From NCBI RefSeq assembly GCF_027587195.1, contig NZ_JAPDDP010000046.1, forward strand, positions 1 to 59,185: 59,185 bases of DNA, read 5' to 3'. Source of the DNA: Solirubrobacter phytolaccae. GTDB lineage: Bacteria; Actinomycetota; Thermoleophilia; Solirubrobacterales; Solirubrobacteraceae. The position numbers were made by a program, and so were the translations under genes. Positions 3,219 to 17,160 of this stretch are shown here, piece after piece. The notes below the pieces were generated by a model. That model made no database searches. It was not told the origin of the DNA and was given only the letters and a program-made list of their open reading frames with translations. Every line of letters begins with the position of its first letter. The first letter of the stretch is position 1.

Positions 3219-4943
3219 TCAGGCGTCGTAGAGCCCCTCCAACGAGAAGATCCGCCGCATGATCGCCACCGACGACGCGTAGGTGGAGTCCAGCCCGTAG
3301 TACGACAGCCCGCGGGCGCCGAGCGTGCGGGCCTGCGAGTAGGGCGTGTCAGAGGCGTAGTGGATGATCCCGAAGTCGATCGGGAGCTTGGAGAAGTTGA
3401 CCGCCTCGCCGCTCGGGTAGCGGTCGGCGTCGGCGATCTCGTAGACCGCGTTGCAGAACGGGCCCGCCTCCATCTCGACCACGGTGTACGCCTCGCGGTA
3501 GTAGAAGTCGAGGTAGTTGCGGTTCTGCAGGAAGGTCGACTTGACGGTCACCGCGCGCTGGTTGTCCAGGCCGGAGCCGAACACCAGGTACGGGGCGACA
3601 TCGTCGAAGGTGAACGCGTTGTCGAGCCAGTAGGTCGAGCCGGAGTGCTCGTCGTGGATGACGCCGCTGATCAGGACGTCGCCGACGTCGGCGTTCAGGG
3701 TCGCCGCCTTGCCGAGGACGTAGACGCCGCGCAGCGTGTCGTGCGCGGTCGTGATCTCGCGCAGGATGTTGTAGGCGGCGAGCCCGAGCGGGTACTCGAT
3801 GTTGACCACGACCCCGCCGGTGCGGGCGAGCTTGTCGGCGTCGATCGGGCCGAGCCGGGAGTCCAGCCCGGCCGGGTCGAGCTTGGCCAGGTCGATCACC
3901 TGCGCCGAGACGCGCAGGCCGGTGCGGGAGGAGATGTGCGTGATGCCGAGCTCGCGCTCGGCCTTGCGGCGCCGATCCCACGCCGGCCCGTCCTCGGGCT
4001 GGCGCTCGTAGAACAGCCGCGCGCCGTAGTAGAGGAAGTTCTCCCACGAGCCGGTCTTGCGGCTGGTCCGGAAGCGCTCGAGCTCCTCGAGCAGGTAGTC
4101 CGGGCCGTTGGCCTCCACCCAGGTGACGATCTCCTCCTCGCTCACGCCCGCCCTCGTCGAGACGAGGTTCATGATCGAGTGGGTGTTGGAGGAGACGAAA
4201 TACATCGGCCGGTCCGACAGCGACTGGTCCGTCAGCCGCGCGCGCACCGGCGCCCACCAGCGGCGCGTGAGCCGCTGATAGCCGGCCTGGGAGCCGCCGA
4301 GCATCCGGATCCGCAGGTTGAGCTTGCGGTCGCCCACCTCGCGCACGAAGCCCGCGAGCCCGTCGGGCCAGGACTCGTGCACGCGCGCCCAGTCGCCCGC
4401 CGAGCCGCCGTACGCGGACGCCGCGGCCTCCGGCTCCGGGTCGTCGGGAACGGTCGCGGCGCGCATCAGCACGTGCAGCTTGTTCCACTCGAGCTGGTAG
4501 GCGACGAGCGACGGGATCGCGTCGTCGAGGTCCGAGGTGGAGGCGAGCAGGACCGCGAGCGTGCCTTCGCCGTTGTCGAACCAGCGCCGCCGCCGGGCGG
4601 GCGCCTCCATCGCGGTCCAGTCCTCGATCCGGCCGAACCCCGCGCGCGCGAACGCCTCGGCCTCCTGGCCCATCACCACGCGCTGCGCCCGCCAGACCGA
4701 CTCCGGCAGGCGCCGCAGCGAGTACAGGAACGCACCGAGGTCGGGCTGCTCGAGGTCGTACGCGAGCGGGTGCAGGCTCGAGTTCATCGCCGCGTGCGAG
4801 GGCTCGAGCACCCGCAGCAGCGTCTCGCCCGAGGACCGCAGCAACGTCGTGTACGTGCGGTGGTAGAGCTCGACCTCATCCGAGGCCCGGTGCAACGTCC
4901 CACTCGGCTCGGCGGACGGGACGCGAAGACGAGGGACGGCCAT
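3219..4943 (-). CDS. Large nucleoside-phosphorylase-like protein (possibly DUF6909)
   Basis: 574 residues, no signal peptide or membrane span. The C-terminal half carries nucleoside-phosphorylase-fold features: GVYVLGKAA, then GDVLISGVIHD, then VEMEAG near residue 488, which matches the V-E-M-E-A segment that contacts ribose in MTAN/uridine phosphorylases. The N-terminal 250 residues are mainly helical and unrecognised. Known phosphorylases of this fold are about 230-290 residues, so this is about twice the size. I recall a DUF6909 family of this kind but cannot confirm it. The start at 4943 fits a -10-like box 8 nt upstream; an earlier in-frame ATG at 5006 would pass through that box. Nucleotide or base salvage is a guess. 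Confidence 0.65.
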   Translation of the reverse strand: MAVPRLRVPSAEPSGTLHRASDEVELYHRTYTTLLRSSGETLLRVLEPSHAAMNSSLHPLAYDLEQPDLGAFLYSLRRLPESVWRAQRVVMGQEAEAFARAGFGRIEDWTAMEAPARRRRWFDNGEGTLAVLLASTSDLDDAIPSLVAYQLEWNKLHVLMRAATVPDDPEPEAAASAYGGSAGDWARVHESWPDGLAGFVREVGDRKLNLRIRMLGGSQAGYQRLTRRWWAPVRARLTDQSLSDRPMYFVSSNTHSIMNLVSTRAGVSEEEIVTWVEANGPDYLLEELERFRTSRKTGSWENFLYYGARLFYERQPEDGPAWDRRRKAERELGITHISSRTGLRVSAQVIDLAKLDPAGLDSRLGPIDADKLARTGGVVVNIEYPLGLAAYNILREITTAHDTLRGVYVLGKAATLNADVGDVLISGVIHDEHSGSTYWLDNAFTFDDVAPYLVFGSGLDNQRAVTVKSTFLQNRNYLDFYYREAYTVVEMEAGPFCNAVYEIADADRYPSGEAVNFSKLPIDFGIIHYASDTPYSQARTLGARGLSYYGLDSTYASSVAIMRRIFSLEGLYDA

Positions 4944-4951
4944 GCGCCTGG

Positions 4952-4957
4952 ACGCTA
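4952..4957 (-). promoter_or_regulatory. -10 box TAGCGT of a leaderless transcript
   Basis: On the minus strand TAGCGT is followed by 8 nt and then the ATG at 4943, with no Shine-Dalgarno sequence. This is the spacing expected when transcription starts at the start codon. Confidence 0.55.
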
Positions 4958-5008
4958 CCGCACCGGCTGACACGACCCGCCGACCACTCATTGTGGAAGG
5001 CTTCACCG

Positions 5009-7510
5009 GTGCTCGACGGGATCGTCAACCGCGACGCGCGCCGGGTCGCGCGGGCGCTGCGCGGCCTGCCGGAGGCCGAGCGTCGCGCGCTCGCGCCGGA
5101 GCTGCTGCGACACGCACGCGGCATCGCGGGGACCGGTGGCGAGTCCGTGGTGCACGTCGCGCTCGCCGGGACGGCGACGCTGACGGAGATCCGCCGCCTC
5201 GGGATCTGGTCGGCCTCGACCATCGACGTCGAGCAGGGCCTCGCCGTCCTGCTGGACCGGCGACCCGACTGGCTGCAGGAGTACGCGGAATGGCGGCTGA
5301 CCGGGGACGCCCTGGACTCGCCGTGGACGCTCGTGCGTGGGCTCGTCCGGGCGGGAGCGATCGAGCGGCCCGGCCCGCCGTACCTGAGCGCGCTGATCCG
5401 CGCGAGCCGGCCGCGGTACCACGGCGGGGAGGCCGCCGCGGAGCTCGTCGCCGCCGACCCCACGCTGCTCGAACGCGAGGTGTGGGACCTGCTCACCTCG
5501 GACACGGGCGAGGAGTCGCTGCGCGCCGCCGACGTGACCAACGACTGGGCCCCTGGCGCGGGCTGGAACGAGGTGATCCGCGCGCGGCTGCCACGCGAGC
5601 GCGTGCTCAACGCCGTCCTCGACGGGCTCGCGAACGACATGGTCGCCTACCGCGCGGCCTGGCACACGAAGCTGTGGAAGGACCTGGCGCCGACGCCCGC
5701 CGAGCTCGCGGCCCGCGCCGACCGACTGCGGGTCCTGCTCGGCGCGGCCGCCGAGGCGATCGTCGCGTTCGCGGTCGAGCAGCTCACGCGCGCGAAGGTC
5801 CCGGTGCCGGCCGACGACCTCGCCCCCGCGCTGGCGGCGGCGTCGAAGAAGACCGTCCGCGGCGCGCTCAAGCTGCTGGGCGACGAGCCGGCGGCCGCGA
5901 CCATCGCGCTCGGCCACGCGGACGCGGCCGTCCAGGGCGCGGCGCTCGACCGGCTCGAGCGCACCACGCTCGACGATGGCGCCCGCGACGGGCTCCTGCG
6001 TCACCTGGACCTGCTGTCGGCGACGATGCGGCCGCGGGCGGAGGCGCTGCTCGGCCTCGCGCTCCCGGCGACGGAGGAGGTCGTCGCGGTCGACGTGTCG
6101 GAGCTCCCAGAGGCGATCCGTACGGCGCTGAACTTCGGCGGCCCGCTGCCGCCGGCGCCGATCGCGGGCGAGCCGGTGCTGGGCGAGCCGGTCCCGCCGC
6201 TGGAGACCGTCGAGGCGCTCGCCCAGTCGCTCGCCGAGCGCCACGAGTACGGCCCGCCGTTCCCGGAGGACGAGCGCCAGCTGGACGCGATCCTGCGCCA
6301 CTGCGCGACGCGGGAGCCGTTCGAGGGCGCGCTCGCCCCGTTCGTCGAGTCCTTGCGCGAGCTGTCCGTGGACGGTTGGCTGCTGTGGCCGCGGGGTGTG
6401 GCGGCGAGCTGGCTCACCGGCACGGAGCCCAAGTGGAGAGACGGGCCGTCGTCGGTCGACTTCCTGCGCCTCCACACCGTCGGCACCCGTGCCGCTCGCG
6501 GCGAAGCGGGGCCGCTGCTCGCGTTGCCGACGCACGTCGGCGGGTGGATCGACGCGCGCGTGCTGGTCCAGCGCGTCGTCGCCTCGGGCACGCGGGTCGA
6601 CGAGGTGGAGCTCGCGCAGGCGATCCTCCGGCTGGCCCTGGATCACCGCGCGGAAGCGCTCGCCGCCGCGGCCGACCTCCCCGGAGCGTCCGGCGCGGCG
6701 CTGCGCTGCGCGTTCGGCGGCGAGCCGGTCGAGGCCGGCAGCTGGGTCGCGGACGCCGCGCGCGCCGTCGCCGGGCTCACGCCGATCGTCGCCAAGGTCG
6801 TGCATCACCAGACCTTCAAGGGCGACGCGTTGCGCGTGCGCGTGCCGACGGGTCCCGTCGGCGGCGGGCCGCTCGGCGCGGCGCTCGGCGGCATCGGCGG
6901 CGACGGGTGGTACGACAGCCACGACTTCCCGGCGCGCACCGATCTCGCCGCGGCCGCGGCGATCCGCAGGATCAGCCGGTACCTCGACAGCACCGAGTCG
7001 GTCCCCACCGCCGGCGCGCTGCTGCCGCGTCTGCTCCCGCCGCGCCAGCCGATCGCACCGCTCACGGTGCGTTTCCTCGTCCTCGCGCTGGGCTCCGGCG
7101 CGCCGGGCGAGCATCTGCTCGCGGTCGACGTGCTGATCGCCGCGATCGAGGACGGCCGCGTCGACGCGCTGCCGCCCGACGACGTCGGCTTGATCAAGCC
7201 GAACCGGCTCGCCGCGCGGCTGACCACGATCGCCGAGGCCGGTCCGCTCCACGGCGCCGTCGTGCGCGAGCTGCTGGACGCGTCGATCCACCTCGTGCCC
7301 GCCCGCTCCGGCCCGCTGCTCGTGCTCTTCGACGAGCTCTGCGCGCAGACGAGCACCGGCCCGCGACGTTCCCGCGAGCACCTGCGCACGTCCAAGCACA
7401 AGGCGGCGAAGGCGTTGCTCAACCGACACGGCGACCCGCCCGCCGAGGAAGCGCAGCTTGCACTCGCCGCGCGCGCCCGCCGGGCCCGGCGCTGGATGGC
7501 GGCGACGTGA
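5009..7510 (+). CDS. DUF6493-type repeat protein, paralog 1
   Basis: 833 residues, predicted cytosolic, mostly alpha-helical and leucine/alanine rich like HEAT-type scaffolds. It shares a block order with the two paralogs downstream: HTKLWK near 218, a helical repeat with KKTVRGALKLL near 290, GEPVLGEP near 387, LPTHVGGWI near 506, and a C-terminal block with KPNRLAARL near 730 and LLVLFDELCAQT near 770. I assign these to the DUF6493 family, often found next to SWIM zinc-finger genes; function is unknown. GTG at 5009 was chosen because GGAAGG lies 8 nt before it; a TTG at 4991 in the same frame has no such site. The next gene overlaps its stop by 4 nt. Confidence 0.8.
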   Translation: MLDGIVNRDARRVARALRGLPEAERRALAPELLRHARGIAGTGGESVVHVALAGTATLTEIRRLGIWSASTIDVEQGLAVLLDRRPDWLQEYAEWRLTGDALDSPWTLVRGLVRAGAIERPGPPYLSALIRASRPRYHGGEAAAELVAADPTLLEREVWDLLTSDTGEESLRAADVTNDWAPGAGWNEVIRARLPRERVLNAVLDGLANDMVAYRAAWHTKLWKDLAPTPAELAARADRLRVLLGAAAEAIVAFAVEQLTRAKVPVPADDLAPALAAASKKTVRGALKLLGDEPAAATIALGHADAAVQGAALDRLERTTLDDGARDGLLRHLDLLSATMRPRAEALLGLALPATEEVVAVDVSELPEAIRTALNFGGPLPPAPIAGEPVLGEPVPPLETVEALAQSLAERHEYGPPFPEDERQLDAILRHCATREPFEGALAPFVESLRELSVDGWLLWPRGVAASWLTGTEPKWRDGPSSVDFLRLHTVGTRAARGEAGPLLALPTHVGGWIDARVLVQRVVASGTRVDEVELAQAILRLALDHRAEALAAAADLPGASGAALRCAFGGEPVEAGSWVADAARAVAGLTPIVAKVVHHQTFKGDALRVRVPTGPVGGGPLGAALGGIGGDGWYDSHDFPARTDLAAAAAIRRISRYLDSTESVPTAGALLPRLLPPRQPIAPLTVRFLVLALGSGAPGEHLLAVDVLIAAIEDGRVDALPPDDVGLIKPNRLAARLTTIAEAGPLHGAVVRELLDASIHLVPARSGPLLVLFDELCAQTSTGPRRSREHLRTSKHKAAKALLNRHGDPPAEEAQLALAARARRARRWMAAT

Positions 7511-10020
7511 GCGCGTTCCCGGACACCCTGCTCGACGCGCTCGTCGCCGCCGACCAGGCGGGCGTGATGTCCGCGCTGCGCGGGCGCGAGGAGGCGGAGC
7601 GACGCGCGGCCGCCAAGCTCCTGATGGCCGCGCCCCACCGGGACTTCGGGTTCATCGAGCGCGCGCCGGACGGCGGGCTCGTCGCGGTACCGCGGACCGA
7701 GTGGACCAACGAGGCCTCGATGCGTGAGTACGAGCAGGGCAAGCTGTTCTACCTCGCGCTGCTCGGCACCGCGTCGATGGAGCAGCTGCGCCGTCACGCG
7801 TGGGCGCTGAGCTGCGTCGACGACGCGCCCGCCGCGACGGTGCTGCTCGAGCGCCGCCCACGCTGGCTCGCCTCCTGGGCGCAGTGGATCCTCTCCACGC
7901 AGACCGCGTTCGTGAAGTGGCCGCTGGTCCGCGACCTCGTCCGGGCCGGCGCGATCGAGCGCCCCGACGCTTACGTTCCCGCCCTGCTGCGGATGCGCTG
8001 GTACCACGACCCCACCCCGCTGGCCGAGCTGCTCGACGGCGACCCCGAGTTCTGGGAGCGCGACGTGTGGGAGCTGATCGCCTACCGCGGCGACGACGCC
8101 AGCCAGCGCGCGGCAGACGTGTGCGGGTGGAGCACGCTGATCGCGGCGCGGGTGCGGGAGCGCGACCGGCTGCTCGACGCGCTGCTCGAGCCACTCGCGG
8201 ACCTCAGCGCCTACCGCGCCGCCTGGCACACGAAGCTGTGGAAGGCGTTGAAGCCCACGCGGGCCGAGCGCGCGGCGCGGGCCGACACGCTGCGGGCGCT
8301 GCTCGGCGCGTCCGCCGAGCCGGTCGTCGGCTTCGCGCTGGACGAGCTCGTGCGCTCCGGCGCGCCGATCGCCGCGACCGACCTCACCCCCGCCCTCGCC
8401 GCCACCGCGAAGAAGACCGTCCGCACCGCGCTCAAGCAGCTCGACGGCGCGCCCGCGCTCGCATCCATCGCGCTCGGGCATCCCGACGCCGACATCCAGG
8501 CCGAGGTGCTCGACCGGCTCGAGCGTGGCCCGCTCGACGACGCCGCCCGGGGCGAGCTGCTGCGCCAGCTGGACGGGCTCGCCGCGACGCAGCGCCCGCG
8601 CGCCGAAGCCCTGCTCGGCGTGGCGCTTCCAGAGGCGCACGAGACCGTGGAGGTCGACGTCTCGGGCATCCCCGCGGCCATCCGCGCCGCGCTGAACTTC
8701 GGTGGCCCGCTGCCCGACGCGCCGATCCCGGGCGAGCCGGTGCTCGGTGAGCCGGTGACGCCGATCGCGACCGTCGACGCGCTCGTGCGCGAGCTCCAGC
8801 CGCTGTCCGCGCGCGACGACGTGCTCGACGCGCTGCTGCGCTTCTGCGACCGGCCCGCGCCCACGGCGCTGATGGAGCGATACCCGGAGGGGATGGGGTC
8901 GTGGCTCGGCGCGCTCGACCGGGTCGGCTACGCCTGGGTGCACCGGGAGCTCGCCGCGCCGCCCGAGTACCACCCCGAGGTGCCGCCGGCGCCCGCGGAG
9001 CACCGCGCCGCGCGCGCCGCCGCCGGCCCGTACCTCGCGCTGCCCACCCACCGCGGCGGCTGGATCGACCCGCGCGCGCTCGTCGCCCGGCTGCACGCGC
9101 ACGCGACCGAGGACGAGCTCGCCCGGGCGATCCTCCGGCTCGCGCCCGAGGGCCGCGCCGAAGCACTCGCGGCGGGCGGCGAGCCGCTCCCGCCCGCGCT
9201 GCGGTGCGCGCTCGGCGGCGAGCCCGTCGGCGGCGACGGACCGGCGGCCGTCGCGGCACGCGCGGTGGCCGGCCTCGACCCGTTCGCCGTGGAGGTGGAG
9301 TGGGGCCCGGACGAGTGGGAGTCCGAGAGCTTCGAGGTGCGGGTCACGCCGCTGCCGAGCGCCGGCCCGCTGCGCCGGCACGTCGAGGAGGCGTGCGGCG
9401 AGCACAGCGTCTACGGGCGCGTGCCGCTGGACCCGAACGCGTTCCCCGGCCGCCGCGAGCTCGCGTGCGCGGCCGCGATCCGCGAAGTCGGCTGGAACCT
9501 GGACGACGTCCGTCGCGGCGAACTCGGCGCGGTCGTGCTGGAGACGTTGGCGCCCGCGACCGAGCCGCTCCCGCCGCTCGGCATCCGCCTGGCCGTGCTC
9601 GCGCTGGGCTCGTTCGCCGAGCGGGAGCGGCTGCTCGGCGCCGACCTGCTGATCGCCGGCATCGAGGACGGCCGCATCGACCGGCTCCCCATCCTCGACG
9701 CCGCGCGGCTCAAGCCCAACCGGCTCGCGACCGGCCTGGGGAACGTCGCCACCGCCGGGCCGCTGCCGCGGGCGCTCGTGCGCGCGTTCCTCGACGCGAC
9801 CGAGCCGCGCGCCGCGCCGCTCCTCGTCCTGTTCGACGAGCTGTGCGCGCAGACGCACACCGGGCCGGTCGCGGCGCGCGCGCACCTGGGCACGCTCACC
9901 GGCTCGAGCAAGGCCGCGAAGGCCGCGCGTTCGCTCCTCGCGCGCGAGGGGAACGAGGATGTCGAGTCCCTGGTCCTCGCCGCGCGGGCACTCCGGGCAC
10001 AACGCTGGATGGAGCCATGA
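7507..10020 (+). CDS. DUF6493-type repeat protein, paralog 2
   Basis: 837 residues with the same block order as paralog 1: HTKLWK near 241, KKTVRTALKQL near 305, GEPVLGEP near 408, LPTHRGGWI near 511, KPNRLATGL near 736 and LLVLFDELCAQT near 776. Around HTKLWK the DNA is almost identical to paralog 1 over about 30 bp, which fits duplication within the operon. It has an extra N-terminal stretch (about residues 35-75) that paralog 1 lacks but paralog 3 has. The GTG start lies in GTGA, overlapping the stop of paralog 1, so translation is probably coupled. No catalytic motif is visible; a scaffold or binding role is inferred. Confidence 0.8.
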   Translation: MSAFPDTLLDALVAADQAGVMSALRGREEAERRAAAKLLMAAPHRDFGFIERAPDGGLVAVPRTEWTNEASMREYEQGKLFYLALLGTASMEQLRRHAWALSCVDDAPAATVLLERRPRWLASWAQWILSTQTAFVKWPLVRDLVRAGAIERPDAYVPALLRMRWYHDPTPLAELLDGDPEFWERDVWELIAYRGDDASQRAADVCGWSTLIAARVRERDRLLDALLEPLADLSAYRAAWHTKLWKALKPTRAERAARADTLRALLGASAEPVVGFALDELVRSGAPIAATDLTPALAATAKKTVRTALKQLDGAPALASIALGHPDADIQAEVLDRLERGPLDDAARGELLRQLDGLAATQRPRAEALLGVALPEAHETVEVDVSGIPAAIRAALNFGGPLPDAPIPGEPVLGEPVTPIATVDALVRELQPLSARDDVLDALLRFCDRPAPTALMERYPEGMGSWLGALDRVGYAWVHRELAAPPEYHPEVPPAPAEHRAARAAAGPYLALPTHRGGWIDPRALVARLHAHATEDELARAILRLAPEGRAEALAAGGEPLPPALRCALGGEPVGGDGPAAVAARAVAGLDPFAVEVEWGPDEWESESFEVRVTPLPSAGPLRRHVEEACGEHSVYGRVPLDPNAFPGRRELACAAAIREVGWNLDDVRRGELGAVVLETLAPATEPLPPLGIRLAVLALGSFAERERLLGADLLIAGIEDGRIDRLPILDAARLKPNRLATGLGNVATAGPLPRALVRAFLDATEPRAAPLLVLFDELCAQTHTGPVAARAHLGTLTGSSKAAKAARSLLAREGNEDVESLVLAARALRAQRWMEP

Positions 10021-11228
10021 TCGAGCACGCGTACACCTACGCCCACCCGTCGACCGCGACCGCGGACGCGCTCGACCTGGCCACGAGCGGCGGCGTCGCC
10101 GCGCACCCGCACCTGTTCCGCGGCGAGCTCAACGACCCGGCGATCCACGCGAGCGCGATCCTCGCCGTCGCGCGCACCGCCCGCGCGCGGTTCTTCGAGC
10201 ATGGGAAGGTGATCACCGACCCGGTCGTCACCTGCCACGCGGACCGGATCCGCTTCGAGGCGCTGAGCTCGTGCGCGGGCGTGTACGCGCGTCACGACGC
10301 CCTGCTGAGCGGCGCCGACGGCGAGGTGCTGCGCGTCGGCGTGACCAACGTGGACGTCAATGAGGCCACCCGCGGCGTGCTCGCCCGCGTCGGCGGAACC
10401 GGCTGGCTGCACCTCGCGGTCGGCGAGGACGAGGTGCAGGTCGCCGGGCCGGGCGGGGTCGCCGTCGAGCGCAAGGTGGCGCTGCCGACGCGCTGGGTGA
10501 AGGGCTTCGGCGAGGTCGGCGTCGCCTCGCGCGCGCTGCAGCCGGGGTTCGAGCTGTCCGGCGTCGCCGCCCAGCGCTTCCTGCGGACGTCGGTCCCGCG
10601 CACGCGCGAGGTCTTCCTGATGCCCGGCGGGCGCTGGTCGGTCGCGGGCGGTGCCGGCGCCGTCGCCGTGCGCGATCCCGAGCGGCTGAAGCTGCTCGAG
10701 CCGCTCGCCCGCTTCGGCAGCGCGCTGCGCGTGTGGGGCGGCCCGACCGGCGTGAGCGCGTTCACGCTCACGCTCGGCACCGCGGGCACGTTCACGCTCG
10801 TGCTCAGCCCGGCCAGCTCACGCGGATTCTCCGGCGAGGGCGGCTCGCTCAACCCGCTGGCGACCGAGGCGCTGCAGCCGCAGGCCGACGACGCCGAGCT
10901 CGACCTCGCGTGGCAGCCCAAGCTCGCCGGCGACCCCGCCGTGCTCGACGTCCTCGCCGCCCGCGGCCGCGCGGGCTTCGACCTCGACGCCGGCGGCTTC
11001 TTCCACCGCGACCTCCCCTACGACCTCACGCAGGTCGAGGCGCTGCACCCGCGCCTGCTCGCCGCGCGCAAGCTCGTCCCCGAGGTGCGATGGGAGGGCG
11101 ACCACGCGTGGGTCGGCCAGTACCGCGTGTCGCCGCCGGCGTGCACGTGCGAGTGGTGGGGCCGCTACCGCGGTGAGCGCGGGCCGTGCAAGCACGTGCT
11201 GGCGGCAGAGCTCGCGCGTGACGCCTGA
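10017..11228 (+). CDS. SWIM zinc-finger protein
   Basis: 403 residues. The C-terminus holds the SWIM motif CxCx(n)CxH: C376, C378, C391 and H393, embedded in a Trp/Arg-rich loop. SWIM domains bind zinc and mediate contacts with DNA or proteins. The rest is beta-rich (many short V/T strands around residues 90-290) and resembles the SWIM proteins encoded beside DUF6493 genes; E. coli YehQ is a distant member associated with MoxR/VWA genes. Its ATG overlaps the stop of paralog 2 (ATGA), and its end overlaps the start of paralog 3, so it sits in the middle of the operon. No nuclease or ATPase motif is present. Confidence 0.85.
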   Translation: MIEHAYTYAHPSTATADALDLATSGGVAAHPHLFRGELNDPAIHASAILAVARTARARFFEHGKVITDPVVTCHADRIRFEALSSCAGVYARHDALLSGADGEVLRVGVTNVDVNEATRGVLARVGGTGWLHLAVGEDEVQVAGPGGVAVERKVALPTRWVKGFGEVGVASRALQPGFELSGVAAQRFLRTSVPRTREVFLMPGGRWSVAGGAGAVAVRDPERLKLLEPLARFGSALRVWGGPTGVSAFTLTLGTAGTFTLVLSPASSRGFSGEGGSLNPLATEALQPQADDAELDLAWQPKLAGDPAVLDVLAARGRAGFDLDAGGFFHRDLPYDLTQVEALHPRLLAARKLVPEVRWEGDHAWVGQYRVSPPACTCEWWGRYRGERGPCKHVLAAELARDA

Positions 11229-13731
11229 CCCGCTGCTCGCCGCGATCATCGCGGGCGATGCGCGCGCCGTCGTCCTGCTGCTGCGCGGGTGGACGGAGGC
11301 GCAGCGGCGGGAACGAGCGCCGGCGTTGCTCGCGCTCGAGCGGGCGACGGACGACCCGCTGAAGCTCCTCGACGACGCCGGCAGGCCGCACGAGGTCGGC
11401 TGGGACGACCGCGAGCGCTACGACCGCGCGTACGCGCAGCGTCGGGCGCTCGAAGTCGCCCTTGTCGGCACCGCGTCGCTGGCGGAGCAGCGCGCGCTCG
11501 CCGAGCCGTTTCCCGCGTGGCTCGACGTGCAGCGCGCCGCCCAGGTGGTGTTCGACCGCGACCCGCCGTGGCTCGCCGACTGGACCGCGTGGCAACTGCG
11601 CAGTGAAGGCCCGGAAGGCCGCTGGCCGCTCGTGCACCTCCAGGTGCGGGCAGGGCTGATCAAGCGCCCGCGCGACTACCTCGACGGCCTGCTCGGCGCG
11701 TTTCCCTGGTTCGACGCGCGCGACCTGCTCGAGGATGACCCGGAGCTGCTCGAGCACGATGTCTGGGCGTTGCTGTGCCACCACGACGGTCAGGAGAGCC
11801 TGCGCGCGGCGCAGGACCGCGGCGCGCACTGGCGCGAGGCGCTGATCGCGCAGCTGGACCGCGAGCGCCTGATCGACGCGACACTCGAAGCGCTCGGGAG
11901 TGACCTCAGCGCCCACCGGGCGGCGTTCTTCACCGGGCTGTGGCGCGAGCTCGCGGTCACCAACGCGGAGCGGGCCGCGCGGCATGACCAGCTGCGCGGA
12001 CTGCTCGGCGTGGCCGCCGCGAACGTGCTCACACTCGCGCTCGACGAGCTCACGCGGGACCCGCGCCCGGTGGCCCCGCCGGAGCTGGCTCCCGCCCTGG
12101 CGGCACGCGCCAAGCGGACGGCCCGGGGTGCGCTGAAGCTGCTCGACCGCGCGCCCGACGCCGCGACCGCGACGATCGCGCTGGGCCACCCCGACGCTGA
12201 CGTCCAGGCCCAGGCGCTCGACCGGCTCGAGCGCTGGGGCCTCACCGACGCCGCCCGCGACGCGCTGCTGCGCCAGCTCGACCTGCTCTCCGCGACCCAA
12301 CGCCCGCGCGCCGAGGCCCTGCTCGGCGTCGCGTCGCCGCGCTCGCGGCCCGACCCCGTCGAGCTCGATCTCGACACCATCCCCGAGGCGATCCGACGCG
12401 CGCTCAACTTCGGCGGAGCCGTGCCGCGCGCGCCCGTGCCCGGCGAACCCGTCCTCGGTGAGCCGATCGAGCCGATCGCGTCACTCGACGAGCTCGCCGA
12501 CGTGCTCGCGACCACGTTGTCGGAGCCGTGGCGCGGCGACGAGCGACTGCTCGACGGCGTGCTGCGGTTCTGCGACCGGCCGTTCGACGGCCCGCTACGG
12601 CCGTTCCACGAGCGCATCCTGGACCTCGAGCACTGGTTCTTCTCCCCGGTCACCGTCGCGGCGGTGTGGGCCACGGGCTTCGTGACCCGAGCGCCGGACG
12701 AGCACGGCAGCCCGTGGGAGTTGCGGCTCTACGAGGCGTCCCAGCGCGTGGTGCGCGGTGAGGCGCGGCCGCTGCTTTCGCTGCCGACCCACGCGGGCGG
12801 GTGGATCGAGCCGCGCGTGCTGCTCGACCGGATGCACGAGGACCCCGACCCGATCGACCTCGCGCAAGCGCTGCTGCGGCTCGCGCCCGAAGGCCGAGAC
12901 CACGCGCTCAGGCGGGTGCGTCGGCACACGAAGCGGGGTCCCGCCGCGGAAGCCGCGCGGGCGGCGCGCGAGCCGGACCGCTTCGCCGTCGAGGTCGTCT
13001 ACGACGACGCCGAGCCGCTCAACCAGCGCGTCAAGGTGCTGATCGACGGACCGCGCGTGAAGCACGACGGCCCGCTCGCGGAGTACGTCGACACGCAGCG
13101 TCGCCGCTGGTCGGGCGCACCGGTCTGGTCCGTGTGGCCCGAGCGACGGGACATCGCGTGCGCGTGCGCGTTGCCGGAGCTGCTCCAGAACCTCGAGAGC
13201 GGCAGCGGCCGGGACACCGACGTCGGCGTCCTGCTGGAGGCGCTGCTGGACCAGCCGCTGCCTCCGCTGGCGCTGCGGCTGCTCGTGCAGGCGCTCGGCT
13301 CCGCGTACGACCGCGAGCACATCGCCGCCGTCGACGTGCTGATCGCGGGCATCCAGGACGGGCGTGTGGACGCCACCGCGCTCCCGCCCGACGACCTCGC
13401 GCGGATCAAGCCGAACCGGCTCGCTGCTCGCCTGCAGACCGTCGCGGACGGCGGGCCGCTGCAGCGGGCGGTCGTGCGGGACTTCCTCGACGCGCACGTC
13501 GCCGCCGTGCCCGAGCGCCCCGCGGCGCTGCTCGTGCTCTTCGACGAGCTGAGCGCGCAGACCGGCGTCGGCCCCCAGCGCTCGCGCGCCTACCTCGAGA
13601 CGCTCAGCGGCACGTCCAAGGCCGCCAAGGCGGCGAAGGCGCTGCTCGCCCGCGCCGGCGAGCCGCCGCCGGTCGAGGCGGAGCTCGCGCTCGCCGCGCG
13701 GGTGCGGCGAGCTCAGCGCTGGATGGGGTAG
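11218..13731 (+). CDS. DUF6493-type repeat protein, paralog 3
   Basis: 837 residues, the same length as paralog 2 but more diverged: the HTKLWK block reads FFTGLWR near 238, and GEPVLGEP (about 409), LPTHAGGWI (about 521), KPNRLAARL (about 731) and LLVLFDELSAQT (about 773) are kept. The GTG at 11218 overlaps the SWIM gene by 11 nt and follows a purine-rich GGCGGCAGAG. The C-terminal end overlaps the convergent MBL/rhodanese gene by 19 nt, so the stop regions are shared coding DNA. As for its paralogs, a structural role in a complex with the SWIM protein is an inference. Confidence 0.8.
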   Translation: MTPDPLLAAIIAGDARAVVLLLRGWTEAQRRERAPALLALERATDDPLKLLDDAGRPHEVGWDDRERYDRAYAQRRALEVALVGTASLAEQRALAEPFPAWLDVQRAAQVVFDRDPPWLADWTAWQLRSEGPEGRWPLVHLQVRAGLIKRPRDYLDGLLGAFPWFDARDLLEDDPELLEHDVWALLCHHDGQESLRAAQDRGAHWREALIAQLDRERLIDATLEALGSDLSAHRAAFFTGLWRELAVTNAERAARHDQLRGLLGVAAANVLTLALDELTRDPRPVAPPELAPALAARAKRTARGALKLLDRAPDAATATIALGHPDADVQAQALDRLERWGLTDAARDALLRQLDLLSATQRPRAEALLGVASPRSRPDPVELDLDTIPEAIRRALNFGGAVPRAPVPGEPVLGEPIEPIASLDELADVLATTLSEPWRGDERLLDGVLRFCDRPFDGPLRPFHERILDLEHWFFSPVTVAAVWATGFVTRAPDEHGSPWELRLYEASQRVVRGEARPLLSLPTHAGGWIEPRVLLDRMHEDPDPIDLAQALLRLAPEGRDHALRRVRRHTKRGPAAEAARAAREPDRFAVEVVYDDAEPLNQRVKVLIDGPRVKHDGPLAEYVDTQRRRWSGAPVWSVWPERRDIACACALPELLQNLESGSGRDTDVGVLLEALLDQPLPPLALRLLVQALGSAYDREHIAAVDVLIAGIQDGRVDATALPPDDLARIKPNRLAARLQTVADGGPLQRAVVRDFLDAHVAAVPERPAALLVLFDELSAQTGVGPQRSRAYLETLSGTSKAAKAAKALLARAGEPPPVEAELALAARVRRAQRWMG

Positions 13732-15074
13732 CCCGCGCGGCCCCAGGTGCCGACGCCGCCGTCGACGACGTGCAGCACCTCACCCGCGCCGAAGCGCTGG
13801 ACCAGGGACGCGCCGACCGCGGCGCGCTGACCCGAGGCGCAGATCACGGCCACCGGTGTGTCCGCGTCCAGTTCGGGCGGGAGCGCGTCGATGTCGTGGT
13901 AGGGCACGAACACCGAGCCCGGGATGTGGCCGGATTCCCACTCGTCGCGCTCGCGCACGTCGAGGATCTGCAGGCCGTCACGGCGCGCGTGGAGCTCGTC
14001 GACGGTGAGCCGCTCGATCTTCGATACCGGCAGCTTCTCCTCGCGCCAGCTCGTCATGCCGCCCGCGAGGTAGCCCGCGATCCGGTCCACGCCGACCGCG
14101 GCGGCCAGCTCGGCGGCGTGCAGGGCGTCGGCGTCGTCGCGGCCGACGAGCACGATCTCCTCGTCCGGGCCGGCGATCCACGCCAGGCGCGTGCCGAAGC
14201 CCGACTGGAGGATCGTGTTGGAGATCGCGCCCGGGATGTGCGCGTCGTCGAACTGCAGTGAGGTGCGCACGTCGATCACGGGCGCATCGAGCGTCTGGAT
14301 CTGGCGCGGCGTCAGAGGGTGCGCGTCCACGGTCCGGCGATCCAGCGGCCCGCGGTTGATCGCGACGATCCCCTTGAAGTTCGGCGGCTGCGGGCGGAGC
14401 CCCGACGTTGCGCGCGTGACGAACTCCCCCTCGTCGTCGACGCCCAGCAGCGCGTTGTGGCGGCGCTCGAAGCCGATCGTCGTGGACACCTTCAGGTCCA
14501 TCGCCGGCCCGCCACACAGCGACCCGCCGAGGTGGCCGGGCCAGACCTCGACGTCGTCGCCGAGCGACAGCAGCTCGCCGTGGAGAGAGCGGAAGATGTC
14601 GCGCGCGCCTTCCTCCTTCTCGACCGCGAGGTCGGGCCGCGCGATGTCGCCGACGAACAGCGAGTCGCCGGTGAGCACCGCCCAGGGCTCAGAACCCCGA
14701 GCCGTGTCGATCAACGCGAACGCCGTGTGCTCGGGCCGGTGCCCGGGCGTGTGCAGCGCGCGCACGATCACGTCGCCCAGCGCGAGCTCCCACCCGTGGT
14801 CGAACGGCTCGTGGTCGTAGTCGGGCGACGCGAGGCGGTGGACGTGGATGCGCGCGCCGGTCGCGGCCGCCAACCGGCCGTGGCCGCTGACGTGGTCGGC
14901 GTGGTTGTGGGTCTCGAGGATGTGCTCGATCTGCACGCCGAGGTAGCGGGCGACGCGTAGGTACTCGCCGATCTCCAGGCGCGGATCGACGACCGCGGCC
15001 ACGCCCGCGGACTCGTCGCCGACCAGGTACGACGCGCACCCGAGATCCTCATGGGCGATCTGGCGGAAGATCAC
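13713..15074 (-). CDS. Persulfide-dioxygenase-like MBL hydrolase fused to two rhodanese domains
   Basis: 453 residues. The N-terminal metallo-beta-lactamase fold has HNHADH (H56, H58, D60, H61), an HTPGH segment, LTGDSLF and WPGH, the layout of ETHE1/CstB-type enzymes that oxidise glutathione or low-molecular-weight persulfides to sulfite. Two rhodanese domains follow. The second has an active-site loop CASGQR with C412; the first has GRDDAD in place of a cysteine loop, so it is probably catalytically dead. Expected role: detoxifying sulfide-derived persulfides in the cytosol. GTG at 15074 was chosen because a TAGGGT box lies 7 nt upstream, pointing to a leaderless mRNA. It is divergent from a ClpE-like gene. 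Confidence 0.85.
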   Translation of the reverse strand: MIFRQIAHEDLGCASYLVGDESAGVAAVVDPRLEIGEYLRVARYLGVQIEHILETHNHADHVSGHGRLAAATGARIHVHRLASPDYDHEPFDHGWELALGDVIVRALHTPGHRPEHTAFALIDTARGSEPWAVLTGDSLFVGDIARPDLAVEKEEGARDIFRSLHGELLSLGDDVEVWPGHLGGSLCGGPAMDLKVSTTIGFERRHNALLGVDDEGEFVTRATSGLRPQPPNFKGIVAINRGPLDRRTVDAHPLTPRQIQTLDAPVIDVRTSLQFDDAHIPGAISNTILQSGFGTRLAWIAGPDEEIVLVGRDDADALHAAELAAAVGVDRIAGYLAGGMTSWREEKLPVSKIERLTVDELHARRDGLQILDVRERDEWESGHIPGSVFVPYHDIDALPPELDADTPVAVICASGQRAAVGASLVQRFGAGEVLHVVDGGVGTWGRAGYPIQR

Positions 15075-15081
15075 GGACCGA

Positions 15082-15087
15082 ACCCTA
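15082..15087 (-). promoter_or_regulatory. -10 box TAGGGT of the persulfide-dioxygenase gene
   Basis: Minus-strand TAGGGT, then 7 nt, then GTG at 15074, with no ribosome-binding site. It faces the divergent clp -10 box 44 nt away, so the two promoters lie back to back. Confidence 0.6.
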
Positions 15088-15131
15088 CAGCGGTCCGTGA
15101 GGCCAATCACATTGCATGCGCAAGCAACCGC

Positions 15132-15137: not shown

Positions 15138-15144
15138 AGTCTGC

Positions 15145-17160
<2,016 letters not shown>

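What the first reader, a model, noticed from the sequence alone, without database searches (positions are those of the whole stretch)
5009..13731. Overlap-coupled operon of three DUF6493 paralogs around a SWIM zinc-finger protein
Seen: four genes with 4-, 4- and 11-nt overlaps; three proteins of 833/837/837 residues with the same block order, and one SWIM protein with an intact C-x-C-x12-C-x-H. Known: DUF6493 genes are often beside SWIM genes, and related SWIM proteins accompany MoxR ATPase/VWA genes in ternary systems proposed to act in biological conflict. Here there is no MoxR or VWA gene, and the repeat protein is triplicated. Inference: a minimal or alternative form in which three different scaffolds assemble with one SWIM protein, perhaps as a nucleic-acid- or protein-sensing complex.
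Basis: partly seen in the sequence, partly recalled or inferred. Interest (0 to 1): 0.8.

Follow-up and report, generated by a model that had tools for sequence, protein, structure and literature searches.

The report
Clamp-like SWIM protein with helical partners
A soil bacterium carries a small optional gene cassette in which one zinc-finger protein, predicted to be shaped like the ring subunit (sliding clamp) that holds DNA-copying enzymes onto DNA, is paired with three fast-changing helical proteins; a relative of the zinc-finger protein belongs to a class of virus-defence systems, so the cassette may be a new kind of DNA-sensing defence.

Summary
In detail: four intact genes (5009-13731, +), overlaps of 4, 4 and 11 nt, three DUF6493-type proteins and one SWIM protein with intact zinc ligands. 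The MoxR/VWA interpretation does not hold. The SWIM gene lies beside a DUF6493 gene in 25 of 26 loci of genomes found through these genes, and in 8 of 8 from a sample of 396 Actinomycetota. No third partner recurs. One plus one is usual. In Solirubrobacter the cassette is optional (3 of 7 genomes, same site) with 2, 3 or 4 DUF6493 genes per SWIM gene. SWIM and flanks stay 88-93% identical between species; DUF6493 copies, 44-77%.

Two unexpected results. The SWIM protein is a relative of the SWIM component of type XIII retrons (20 of 20 members; one complete retron found), but here there is no reverse transcriptase. Its residues 33-267 are predicted to adopt a two-domain PCNA sliding-clamp fold (Z 16.8), undetected by sequence. 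DUF6493 is an ARM/HEAT-like solenoid.

Best reading: an optional DNA-clamp module with a diversifying solenoid repertoire, probably for conflict with phages or mobile DNA. Fold and pairing are well supported. Defence is inferred; neighbouring genes are not defence genes.

The parts
5009..7510 (+). DUF6493 paralog A (833 aa, GTG start); residues 1-353 predicted ARM/HEAT-like solenoid
   Evidence: model pLDDT 85.8; best VIA matches Z 9-10, rmsd about 10, to Integrator and importin-alpha over residues 1-354
6527..6550 (+). PTHxGGWI motif of paralog A (residues 507-514), the best conserved stretch of the DUF6493/DUF7824 protein
   Evidence: P507, H509, G511, G512, W513 and I514 invariant in the 29-sequence alignment
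7507..10020 (+). DUF6493 paralog B (837 aa, GTG start, 4-nt overlap with A)
10017..11228 (+). SWIM zinc-finger protein (403 aa, ATG start, 4-nt overlap with B)
   Evidence: PADLOC SWIM_XIII E 6e-28
10113..10817 (+). predicted PCNA-type sliding-clamp fold of the SWIM protein (residues 33-267)
   Evidence: AlphaFold2 pLDDT 87.3, pTM 0.86; Foldseek PDB best E 1.9e-9; VIA Z 16.8, rmsd 3.0, 212 residues aligned to Sulfolobus PCNA
10848..11084 (+). probable winged-helix segment of the SWIM protein (about residues 278-356)
   Evidence: helix/strand pattern of the model; weak winged-helix Pfam matches in a few of 20 family members; tentative
11100..11219 (+). SWIM zinc finger (residues 362-401), ligands C376, C378, C391, H393
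   Evidence: Pfam 25.3 bits, cut-off 19.6; ligands kept in 19 of the 20 aligned family members
11218..13731 (+). DUF6493 paralog C (837 aa, GTG start, 11-nt overlap with the SWIM gene); its 3' end overlaps the 3' end of the convergent gene by 19 nt
4944..5008 (.). short divergent leader between DUF6909 and the cassette; left edge of the optional cassette
   Evidence: comparison with 4 cassette-less genomes; the DUF6909 start at 4943 is the ATG read from the ORF
3219..4943 (-). left flank, DUF6909 gene, present in all 7 genus genomes searched; not part of the module
   Evidence: (scanned as 3219-4907)
13713..15107 (-). right flank, metallo-beta-lactamase/rhodanese gene, next to DUF6909 where the cassette is absent; not part of the module

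Best explanation
The operon is an optional cassette coding for a DNA-clamp-like SWIM protein and three diversified solenoid partners. Shown: gene structure; pairing of SWIM with DUF6493 across phyla; optional presence at one site with changing DUF6493 copy number; much faster change of DUF6493 than of SWIM; homology of the SWIM protein to the SWIM component of type XIII retrons. Predicted with good confidence: residues 33-267 of the SWIM protein form a two-domain PCNA-type clamp protomer, followed by a probable winged helix and a zinc finger; DUF6493 begins with an ARM/HEAT-like solenoid. Inferred mechanism: the SWIM protein forms a ring or partial ring on nucleic acid, helped by its winged helix and zinc finger, and is the constant platform. 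The DUF6493 proteins dock on it as interchangeable arms that recognise different invader proteins or nucleoprotein structures, or keep the clamp inactive until triggered. Engagement on phage or plasmid DNA then blocks its replication or arrests the cell. In type XIII retrons a related SWIM protein sits beside another helical-repeat protein and is presumably controlled by the retron; here it works without one.
For: Clamp fold. Of 996 PDB chains aligned, 532 have Z of 8 or more, and the 50 rows shown are all PCNA. The clamp region carries a net charge of +3 to +10 in 19 of 20 family members (-1 in one), and R159 and R223 are invariant. Retron kinship: SWIM_XIII matches 20 of 20 SWIM proteins. 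One locus (L099) has HEAT-ARM_XIII 2.9e-175, SWIM_XIII 3.3e-171 and RT_XIII 4.8e-159 side by side, and hhalign of the SWIM family to that retron SWIM gives 99.4% over 382 columns. Pairing: 25 of 26 non-retron SWIM loci and 8 of 8 in an unselected sample. Optional cassette. Diversification: identities, dN/dS 0.35-0.62 for the closest DUF6493 pairs against 0.12-0.25 for SWIM and flanks, and variable blocks in otherwise conserved paralogs. Mobility elsewhere: a SWIM-DUF6493-DUF6493 cassette beside a phage-type integrase on a Diaphorobacter plasmid, and pairs on Asticcacaulis and Streptomyces plasmids.
Against: Nearest neighbours are not known defence genes: at E 1e-15 only 2 of 107 match PADLOC, both to one HEAT-ARM repeat model. 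DUF6493 shows no sequence kinship to the retron HEAT-ARM protein (probability 0.5). The clamp fold rests on one model from a 20-sequence alignment and has no sequence support: the Pfam list up to E 5 holds no clamp family and the PDB sequence search finds none. The positive charge is not special to the presumed inner helices: the four sum to about +5 on average, but the strands sum to +2.8 as well. Ring formation and DNA binding were not tested. No relative of the SWIM protein was found in phage records or viral contigs (DUF6493 was not searched there). Within the genus the cassette sits at one fixed site with no integrase or target duplication seen, less mobile than is usual for defence genes (the last point is general knowledge).
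Confidence: 0.5

Rival explanations
1. A host DNA-maintenance device: a second sliding clamp, comparable in principle to the eukaryotic 9-1-1 checkpoint clamp, that recruits solenoid partners at damaged DNA or stalled forks. It gives a conditional advantage and is not directed at invaders.
For: Rad9-Hus1-Rad1 chains are among the top Foldseek matches. The genome has its own DnaN on another contig, so this would be an added clamp. The window neighbours scanned are ordinary host genes. The cassette sits at a fixed chromosomal site in the genus.
Against: Rare and patchy: 3 of 121 family genomes, 7 of 396 phylum genomes by DUF7824, own genome included. Kinship to a retron component. Copy number and sequence of DUF6493 change fast.
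Confidence: 0.25
2. DUF6493 copies are expanding and drifting under relaxed selection; only SWIM plus one DUF6493 works, and the extra copies are near-neutral duplicates.
For: dN/dS is raised in DUF6493 (0.35-0.62 for closest pairs, about 0.7 for two positional pairs). Copy number is 2, 3 or 4, plus a lone copy in one genome. Most loci outside the genus have one copy.
Against: All ten Solirubrobacter copies are open reading frames without internal stops (copy 1 of S. taibaiensis was read from residue 44 of its frame). dN/dS stays below 1, key residues are kept, most overlapping gene ends are kept, and variation is concentrated in certain blocks.
Confidence: 0.18
3. One reading: a minimal or alternative form of MoxR/VWA ternary conflict systems.
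For: E. coli K-12 has MoxR, VWA and SWIM genes close together (yehL, yehP, yehQ).
Against: No MoxR or VWA gene among the nearby window genes scanned, nor among the 25 commonest families of 107 neighbours. YehQ matches only at the zinc finger; YehM and YehI do not match DUF6493.
Confidence: 0.04

Closest known systems
Type XIII retron (PADLOC models RT_XIII, SWIM_XIII, HEAT-ARM_XIII; example L099 in a Planctomycetota genome)
   Same: A homologous SWIM protein (hhalign 99.4%, 382 columns) encoded next to a large helical-repeat protein.
   Different: No reverse transcriptase in the genome by RVT_1, genes overlap so there is no room for a retron RNA inside the operon, and DUF6493 is not detectably related in sequence to HEAT-ARM_XIII. 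The example's SWIM has no Pfam SWIM match and lacks the zinc ligands, whereas this one keeps them.
PCNA-type sliding clamps (archaeal and eukaryotic PCNA, Rad9-Hus1-Rad1)
   Same: Predicted two-domain fold over residues 33-267, Z up to 16.8; conserved basic residues on helices presumed, from the order of secondary structure, to line the hole.
   Different: About 10% identity, no sequence-family match, extra winged-helix and SWIM parts; ring formation untested.
SWIM + DUF6493 gene pairs annotated in plasmid records (Diaphorobacter, Asticcacaulis, Streptomyces)
   Same: Same two families side by side, SWIM first.
   Different: Usually one DUF6493 (Diaphorobacter has two). Solirubrobacter has 2-4, one after and the rest before the SWIM gene.
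E. coli yeh cluster (YehL MoxR, YehP VWA, YehQ SWIM)
   Same: Contains a SWIM zinc finger.
   Different: No similarity found outside the finger; different partners.

Membership tests
DUF6493/DUF7824 protein family (Pfam PF20103, PF25148) | Profile match above the curated cut-off | tested here: inconclusive
   P0001 passes both, P0004 passes DUF7824 only, P0002 is just below both. Family status of all three rests on the mutual identity and the tree.
DUF6493/DUF7824 protein family (Pfam PF20103, PF25148) | C-terminal DUF7825 (PF25149) | tested here: not met
   No match in the three window proteins up to E 1; 18 of 29 aligned proteins match up to E 0.01. A variable feature, so it does not exclude membership.
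SWIM zinc-finger proteins | CxCxnCxH finger, Pfam PF04434 | tested here: met
   25.3 bits, cut-off 19.6; all four ligands present.
Type XIII retron | SWIM_XIII protein | tested here: met
   E 6e-28; 20 of 20 family members match.
Type XIII retron | Reverse transcriptase | tested here: not met
   No RVT_1 match in the whole genome assembly, 99% complete.
Type XIII retron | HEAT-ARM_XIII partner | tested here: not met
   0 of 29 DUF6493 proteins match it up to E 0.1; hhalign probability 0.5. Both are helical-repeat proteins, so distant kinship remains open.
Type XIII retron | msr-msd RNA next to the genes | tested here: inconclusive
   The genes overlap, leaving no intergenic space inside the operon. 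No RNA-family search was run on the flanks.
MoxR/VWA ternary systems | Adjacent MoxR ATPase and VWA genes | tested here: not met
   None among the nearby window genes scanned; the ClpA/B-type ATPase at 15142-17160 is also present in the 4 genus genomes without the cassette.
PCNA-type sliding clamp | Two-domain clamp fold | tested here: met
   Predicted model only: Z 16.8, rmsd 3.0, 212 aligned.
PCNA-type sliding clamp | Sequence-family membership (PCNA, Rad1, Hus1, DnaN) | tested here: not met
   No clamp family in the Pfam list up to E 5 for 20 members, though HMMER's filters drop most weak matches; no clamp in the PDB sequence search.
PCNA-type sliding clamp | Ring assembly, DNA encirclement, loading by a clamp loader | not testable with these tools
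Anti-phage defence system | Known defence genes nearby | tested here: not met
   2 of 107 nearest neighbours match PADLOC at 1e-15, both to one HEAT-ARM repeat model; no far-neighbour control was scanned.
Anti-phage defence system | Protection against phage | not testable with these tools

The most novel reading that the evidence does not exclude
A clamp toolbelt immune device: bacteria (and type XIII retrons) use a dedicated PCNA-fold protein with a SWIM finger as a ring on invader nucleic acid, and a genus-specific, fast-changing set of DUF6493 solenoids plugs into that one ring, possibly different arms on different subunits, giving several specificities from one constant platform.
Probability: 0.25. 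Interest if true: 0.92.

Novelty: new variant of a known kind. Interest (0 to 1): 0.75.

Why it matters
Bacterial replication uses the DnaN clamp. A separate bacterial protein family with a predicted PCNA-type fold, present in retron-free cassettes and homologous to a type XIII retron component, would suggest what that SWIM component does and make it testable. It would also give a functional frame to DUF6493, a name that no paper in the held library contains, and offer a case of one constant partner with a diversifying set of solenoids, as expected for recognition modules in an arms race.

Tried and rejected
MoxR/VWA link: tested with YehQ, YehM and YehI of E. coli K-12 and with neighbour genes; rejected. 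Retron in this genome: rejected, no reverse transcriptase. A reverse transcriptase lies about 5.7 kb upstream of the SWIM gene in G002 (L102), but its best PADLOC matches are not RT_XIII (best 25 shown) and other genes lie between; not counted as a retron. DUF6493 as a sequence relative of HEAT-ARM_XIII: no support. DUF6493 fold: Foldseek has nothing at E 1e-3 or better, and VIA Z of 10 or less for a helical repeat may mean only a common arrangement. Defence-island signal: not found; which 2 of the 107 neighbours matched is not told; I guess the two WD40-type neighbours in L025. Direction of change at the empty site (gain or loss): not settled. The G055/G070 site keeps a leader 30 of 36 nt identical to that of S. 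taibaiensis, which fits either. Promoter and terminator scan: nothing. Viral contigs and phage records: no relatives of the SWIM protein; DUF6493 not searched there. PCNA sequence kinship: none found. (translation around the genome's other SWIM gene) was read on the wrong strand and led nowhere. Literature: DUF6493 0 papers; retron + type XIII + SWIM 0; MoxR + vWA + SWIM + ternary systems 0; two of retron/XIII/WHSWIM/armadillo 104, 20 listed, listing only, unrelated; MoxR + vWA + SWIM 2, listing only; retron + PADLOC + SWIM 3, listing; retron + type XIII 1, passage read; three of sliding clamp/SWIM/retron/PCNA-like 0; retron + SWIM + HEAT 1, passages read, not relevant; SWIM zinc finger with phage-defence terms 1,175, 25 listed, none of these holding the SWIM term. 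Rows dropped: alignment A2 holds the window SWIM plus 19 of 20 found (L011, cut by a contig end, left out); A3 holds the 3 window proteins plus 26 of 39 found stretches (fragments and edge-cut copies left out). Not counted among SWIM loci: a weak 46-position match in G009 and two finger-only matches, G196 and G409. Only 107 of 314 called neighbour genes were scanned; a random far-neighbour control set was drawn but not scanned.
Full report
The observation. The four genes at 5009-13731 are real and intact. They encode 833, 837, 403 and 837 residues and overlap by 4, 4 and 11 nt. The SWIM finger is C376-x-C378-x12-C391-x-H393. Pfam support for DUF6493/DUF7824 is clear for A, partial for C and just below cut-off for B. 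Identity of 50-51% to A and the tree show that the three are paralogs. They are the only DUF6493 matches in the 7.74 Mb genome.

The conserved unit is a pair. Of the 29 loci found by one genome-collection scan, 20 hold a SWIM gene of this family. Of the 9 without, 5 are cut by a contig end close to the DUF6493 gene. Outside Solirubrobacter the SWIM gene comes first and a DUF6493 gene follows in each of these loci that has both. In 24 genomes or records, 22 chosen because they carry DUF6493 and 2 plasmids chosen because they carry the pair, 25 of 26 non-retron SWIM loci have DUF6493 next to them; the exception is G014. Less biased: among 396 Actinomycetota genomes, 10 match the SWIM model, 8 of them over the clamp region. 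All 8 have DUF6493 alongside: the window, five read (G343, G248, G228, G184, G300), and G268 and G321 by coordinates, 1.3-1.4 kb apart on one strand. Lone DUF6493 genes with room on both sides (L007, L023, L031, L033) all lie in genomes that have a SWIM gene elsewhere. Among 107 nearest neighbour genes of 31 loci, no Pfam family occurs in more than 4 (25 of 236 families shown), so there is no constant third partner.

An optional cassette. In the genus sample of 7 genomes, DUF6909 is present in all, SWIM and DUF6493 in 3. In the 4 without them, DUF6909 and the metallo-beta-lactamase/rhodanese gene are directly adjacent, with 57-109 bp between the aligned ends. In the other 3 the cassette sits between them. 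The order is DUF-SWIM-DUF in G034, DUF-DUF-SWIM-DUF in the window and DUF-DUF-DUF-SWIM-DUF in S. taibaiensis, which has a further lone DUF6493 elsewhere. Most overlapping gene ends are kept: 4 nt before SWIM and 8 nt after it in both relatives, 4 nt between copies 2 and 3 of S. taibaiensis, but a gap between its copies 1 and 2. No integrase or target duplication was seen at this site, and whether absence is ancestral or a loss is unresolved. In the wider family sample, 3 of 121 genomes have DUF6493, all in this genus. On a Diaphorobacter plasmid a SWIM-DUF6493-DUF6493 cassette lies beside a phage-type integrase. In all, the window SWIM protein finds 7 of 72,556 plasmid records.

Constant SWIM, changing DUF6493. 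Between the window and its two relatives the SWIM protein is 89-91% identical and the flanks 88-93%. The DUF6493 copies are 77% at best (A with G034 copy 1); B with S. taibaiensis copy 3 is 59% and C with the lone S. taibaiensis copy 69%; the rest are 44-57%. Nei-Gojobori dN/dS is 0.12-0.25 for flanks and SWIM, 0.38, 0.62 and 0.35 for the three closest DUF6493 pairs, and about 0.7 for two positional pairs. The dS of the DUF6493 pairs (0.41-0.69) is mostly higher than that of flanks and SWIM (0.18-0.46), so some may be older paralogs and the ratios are rough. Across 45 pairs of Solirubrobacter copies, mean identity is 56-65% in residues 186-400 and 54-62% in 666-833, but 38-45% in 1-185, 30% in 401-480 and 34% in 601-665. 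This looks like a repertoire with conserved frame and variable blocks. Relaxed selection is the main alternative.

Kinship to type XIII retrons. PADLOC's SWIM_XIII model matches the window SWIM at 6e-28 and all 20 aligned members of the family. In a Planctomycetota genome (G005) the best SWIM_XIII hit lies next to a reverse transcriptase. That locus (L099) reads HEAT-ARM_XIII, SWIM_XIII, RT_XIII: a complete set of type XIII proteins, in a genome that also carries the DUF6493 type. Profile comparison of the DUF6493-type SWIM family with that retron SWIM gives 99.4% probability over 382 columns. The window genome has no reverse transcriptase by RVT_1, so it is not a retron. DUF6493 is not detectably related to HEAT-ARM_XIII by sequence. 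That SWIM_XIII denotes a retron component is read from PADLOC names and the L099 gene set; the retron classification paper I looked for is not held.

Predicted structures. The SWIM model (pLDDT 87.3, pTM 0.86) matches sliding clamps: Foldseek lists PCNA and 9-1-1 chains at E about 1e-9 to 1e-8 in the 50 rows shown of 490 at E 0.001 or better. VIA gives Z 16.8, rmsd 3.0, 212 residues aligned to Sulfolobus PCNA over model residues 34-266, and 532 of 996 chains have Z of 8 or more. Viral PCNA and DnaN models are also matched. No clamp family is found by sequence. The clamp region is positively charged in 19 of 20 members; the four helices that should line the hole have a positive mean charge each, though the strands are positive on average too. 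Helix assignment was made from the order of secondary structure, not from coordinates. A few members show weak winged-helix matches, which fits the segment before the finger. Zinc ligands are kept in 19 of 20; the exception is a sequence cut short at its end. The genome's DnaN lies on another contig. The DUF6493 model (pLDDT 85.8) is nearly all helical; its first 350 residues resemble ARM/HEAT solenoids with modest scores.

Interpretation. The strongest reading is a clamp-like nucleic-acid platform with swappable solenoid partners. A role in conflict with phages or plasmids is suggested by optional presence, patchy distribution, kinship to a retron component and fast change of the partner. It is not shown: the neighbours scanned are ordinary genes, no relative of the SWIM protein was found in phage records or viral contigs, and a DNA-repair role fits the clamp fold too. 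The MoxR/VWA idea fails on neighbourhood and on sequence. In the searches listed under Tried and rejected I found no paper describing this module or a clamp fold in SWIM proteins; the library is limited to open-licence papers.

Noticed in passing
L099:7852-13361: Complete set of type XIII retron proteins (HEAT-ARM, SWIM, RT) in a Planctomycetota genome that also carries a SWIM-DUF6493 pair; the retron SWIM has degenerate zinc ligands.
   Followed up: partly
window 13713-13731: The last 19 nt of DUF6493 C overlap the 3' end of the convergent metallo-beta-lactamase/rhodanese gene on the other strand.
   Followed up: partly
L103, L104 (gap between DUF6909 and the rhodanese gene): Two genomes without the cassette keep a leader 30 of 36 nt identical to that of the S. 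taibaiensis cassette.
   Followed up: partly
L137 and L016: A planctomycete genome (G008) with DUF6493 and a DUF6493 fragment upstream of SWIM on one contig and two tandem DUF6493 genes on another: multi-copy sets are not confined to Solirubrobacter.
   Followed up: no
L048:9896-11398: Streptomyces cadmiisoli plasmid SWIM gene of this family with no DUF6493 annotated beside it.
   Followed up: no
L102:2162-3190: Reverse transcriptase of another type about 5.7 kb upstream of a SWIM-DUF6493 pair.
   Followed up: partly
L004 (own genome, contig C17): A second SWIM gene in the window genome; it does not match the clamp-type SWIM family profile at E 0.001.
   Followed up: no
control genomes: Of 14 control genomes only the archaeon Methanosarcina acetivorans matches SWIM_XIII.
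   Followed up: no
window 15142-17160: ClpA/B-type AAA+ ATPase gene near the cassette; also present in the 4 genus genomes without the cassette.
   Followed up: yes
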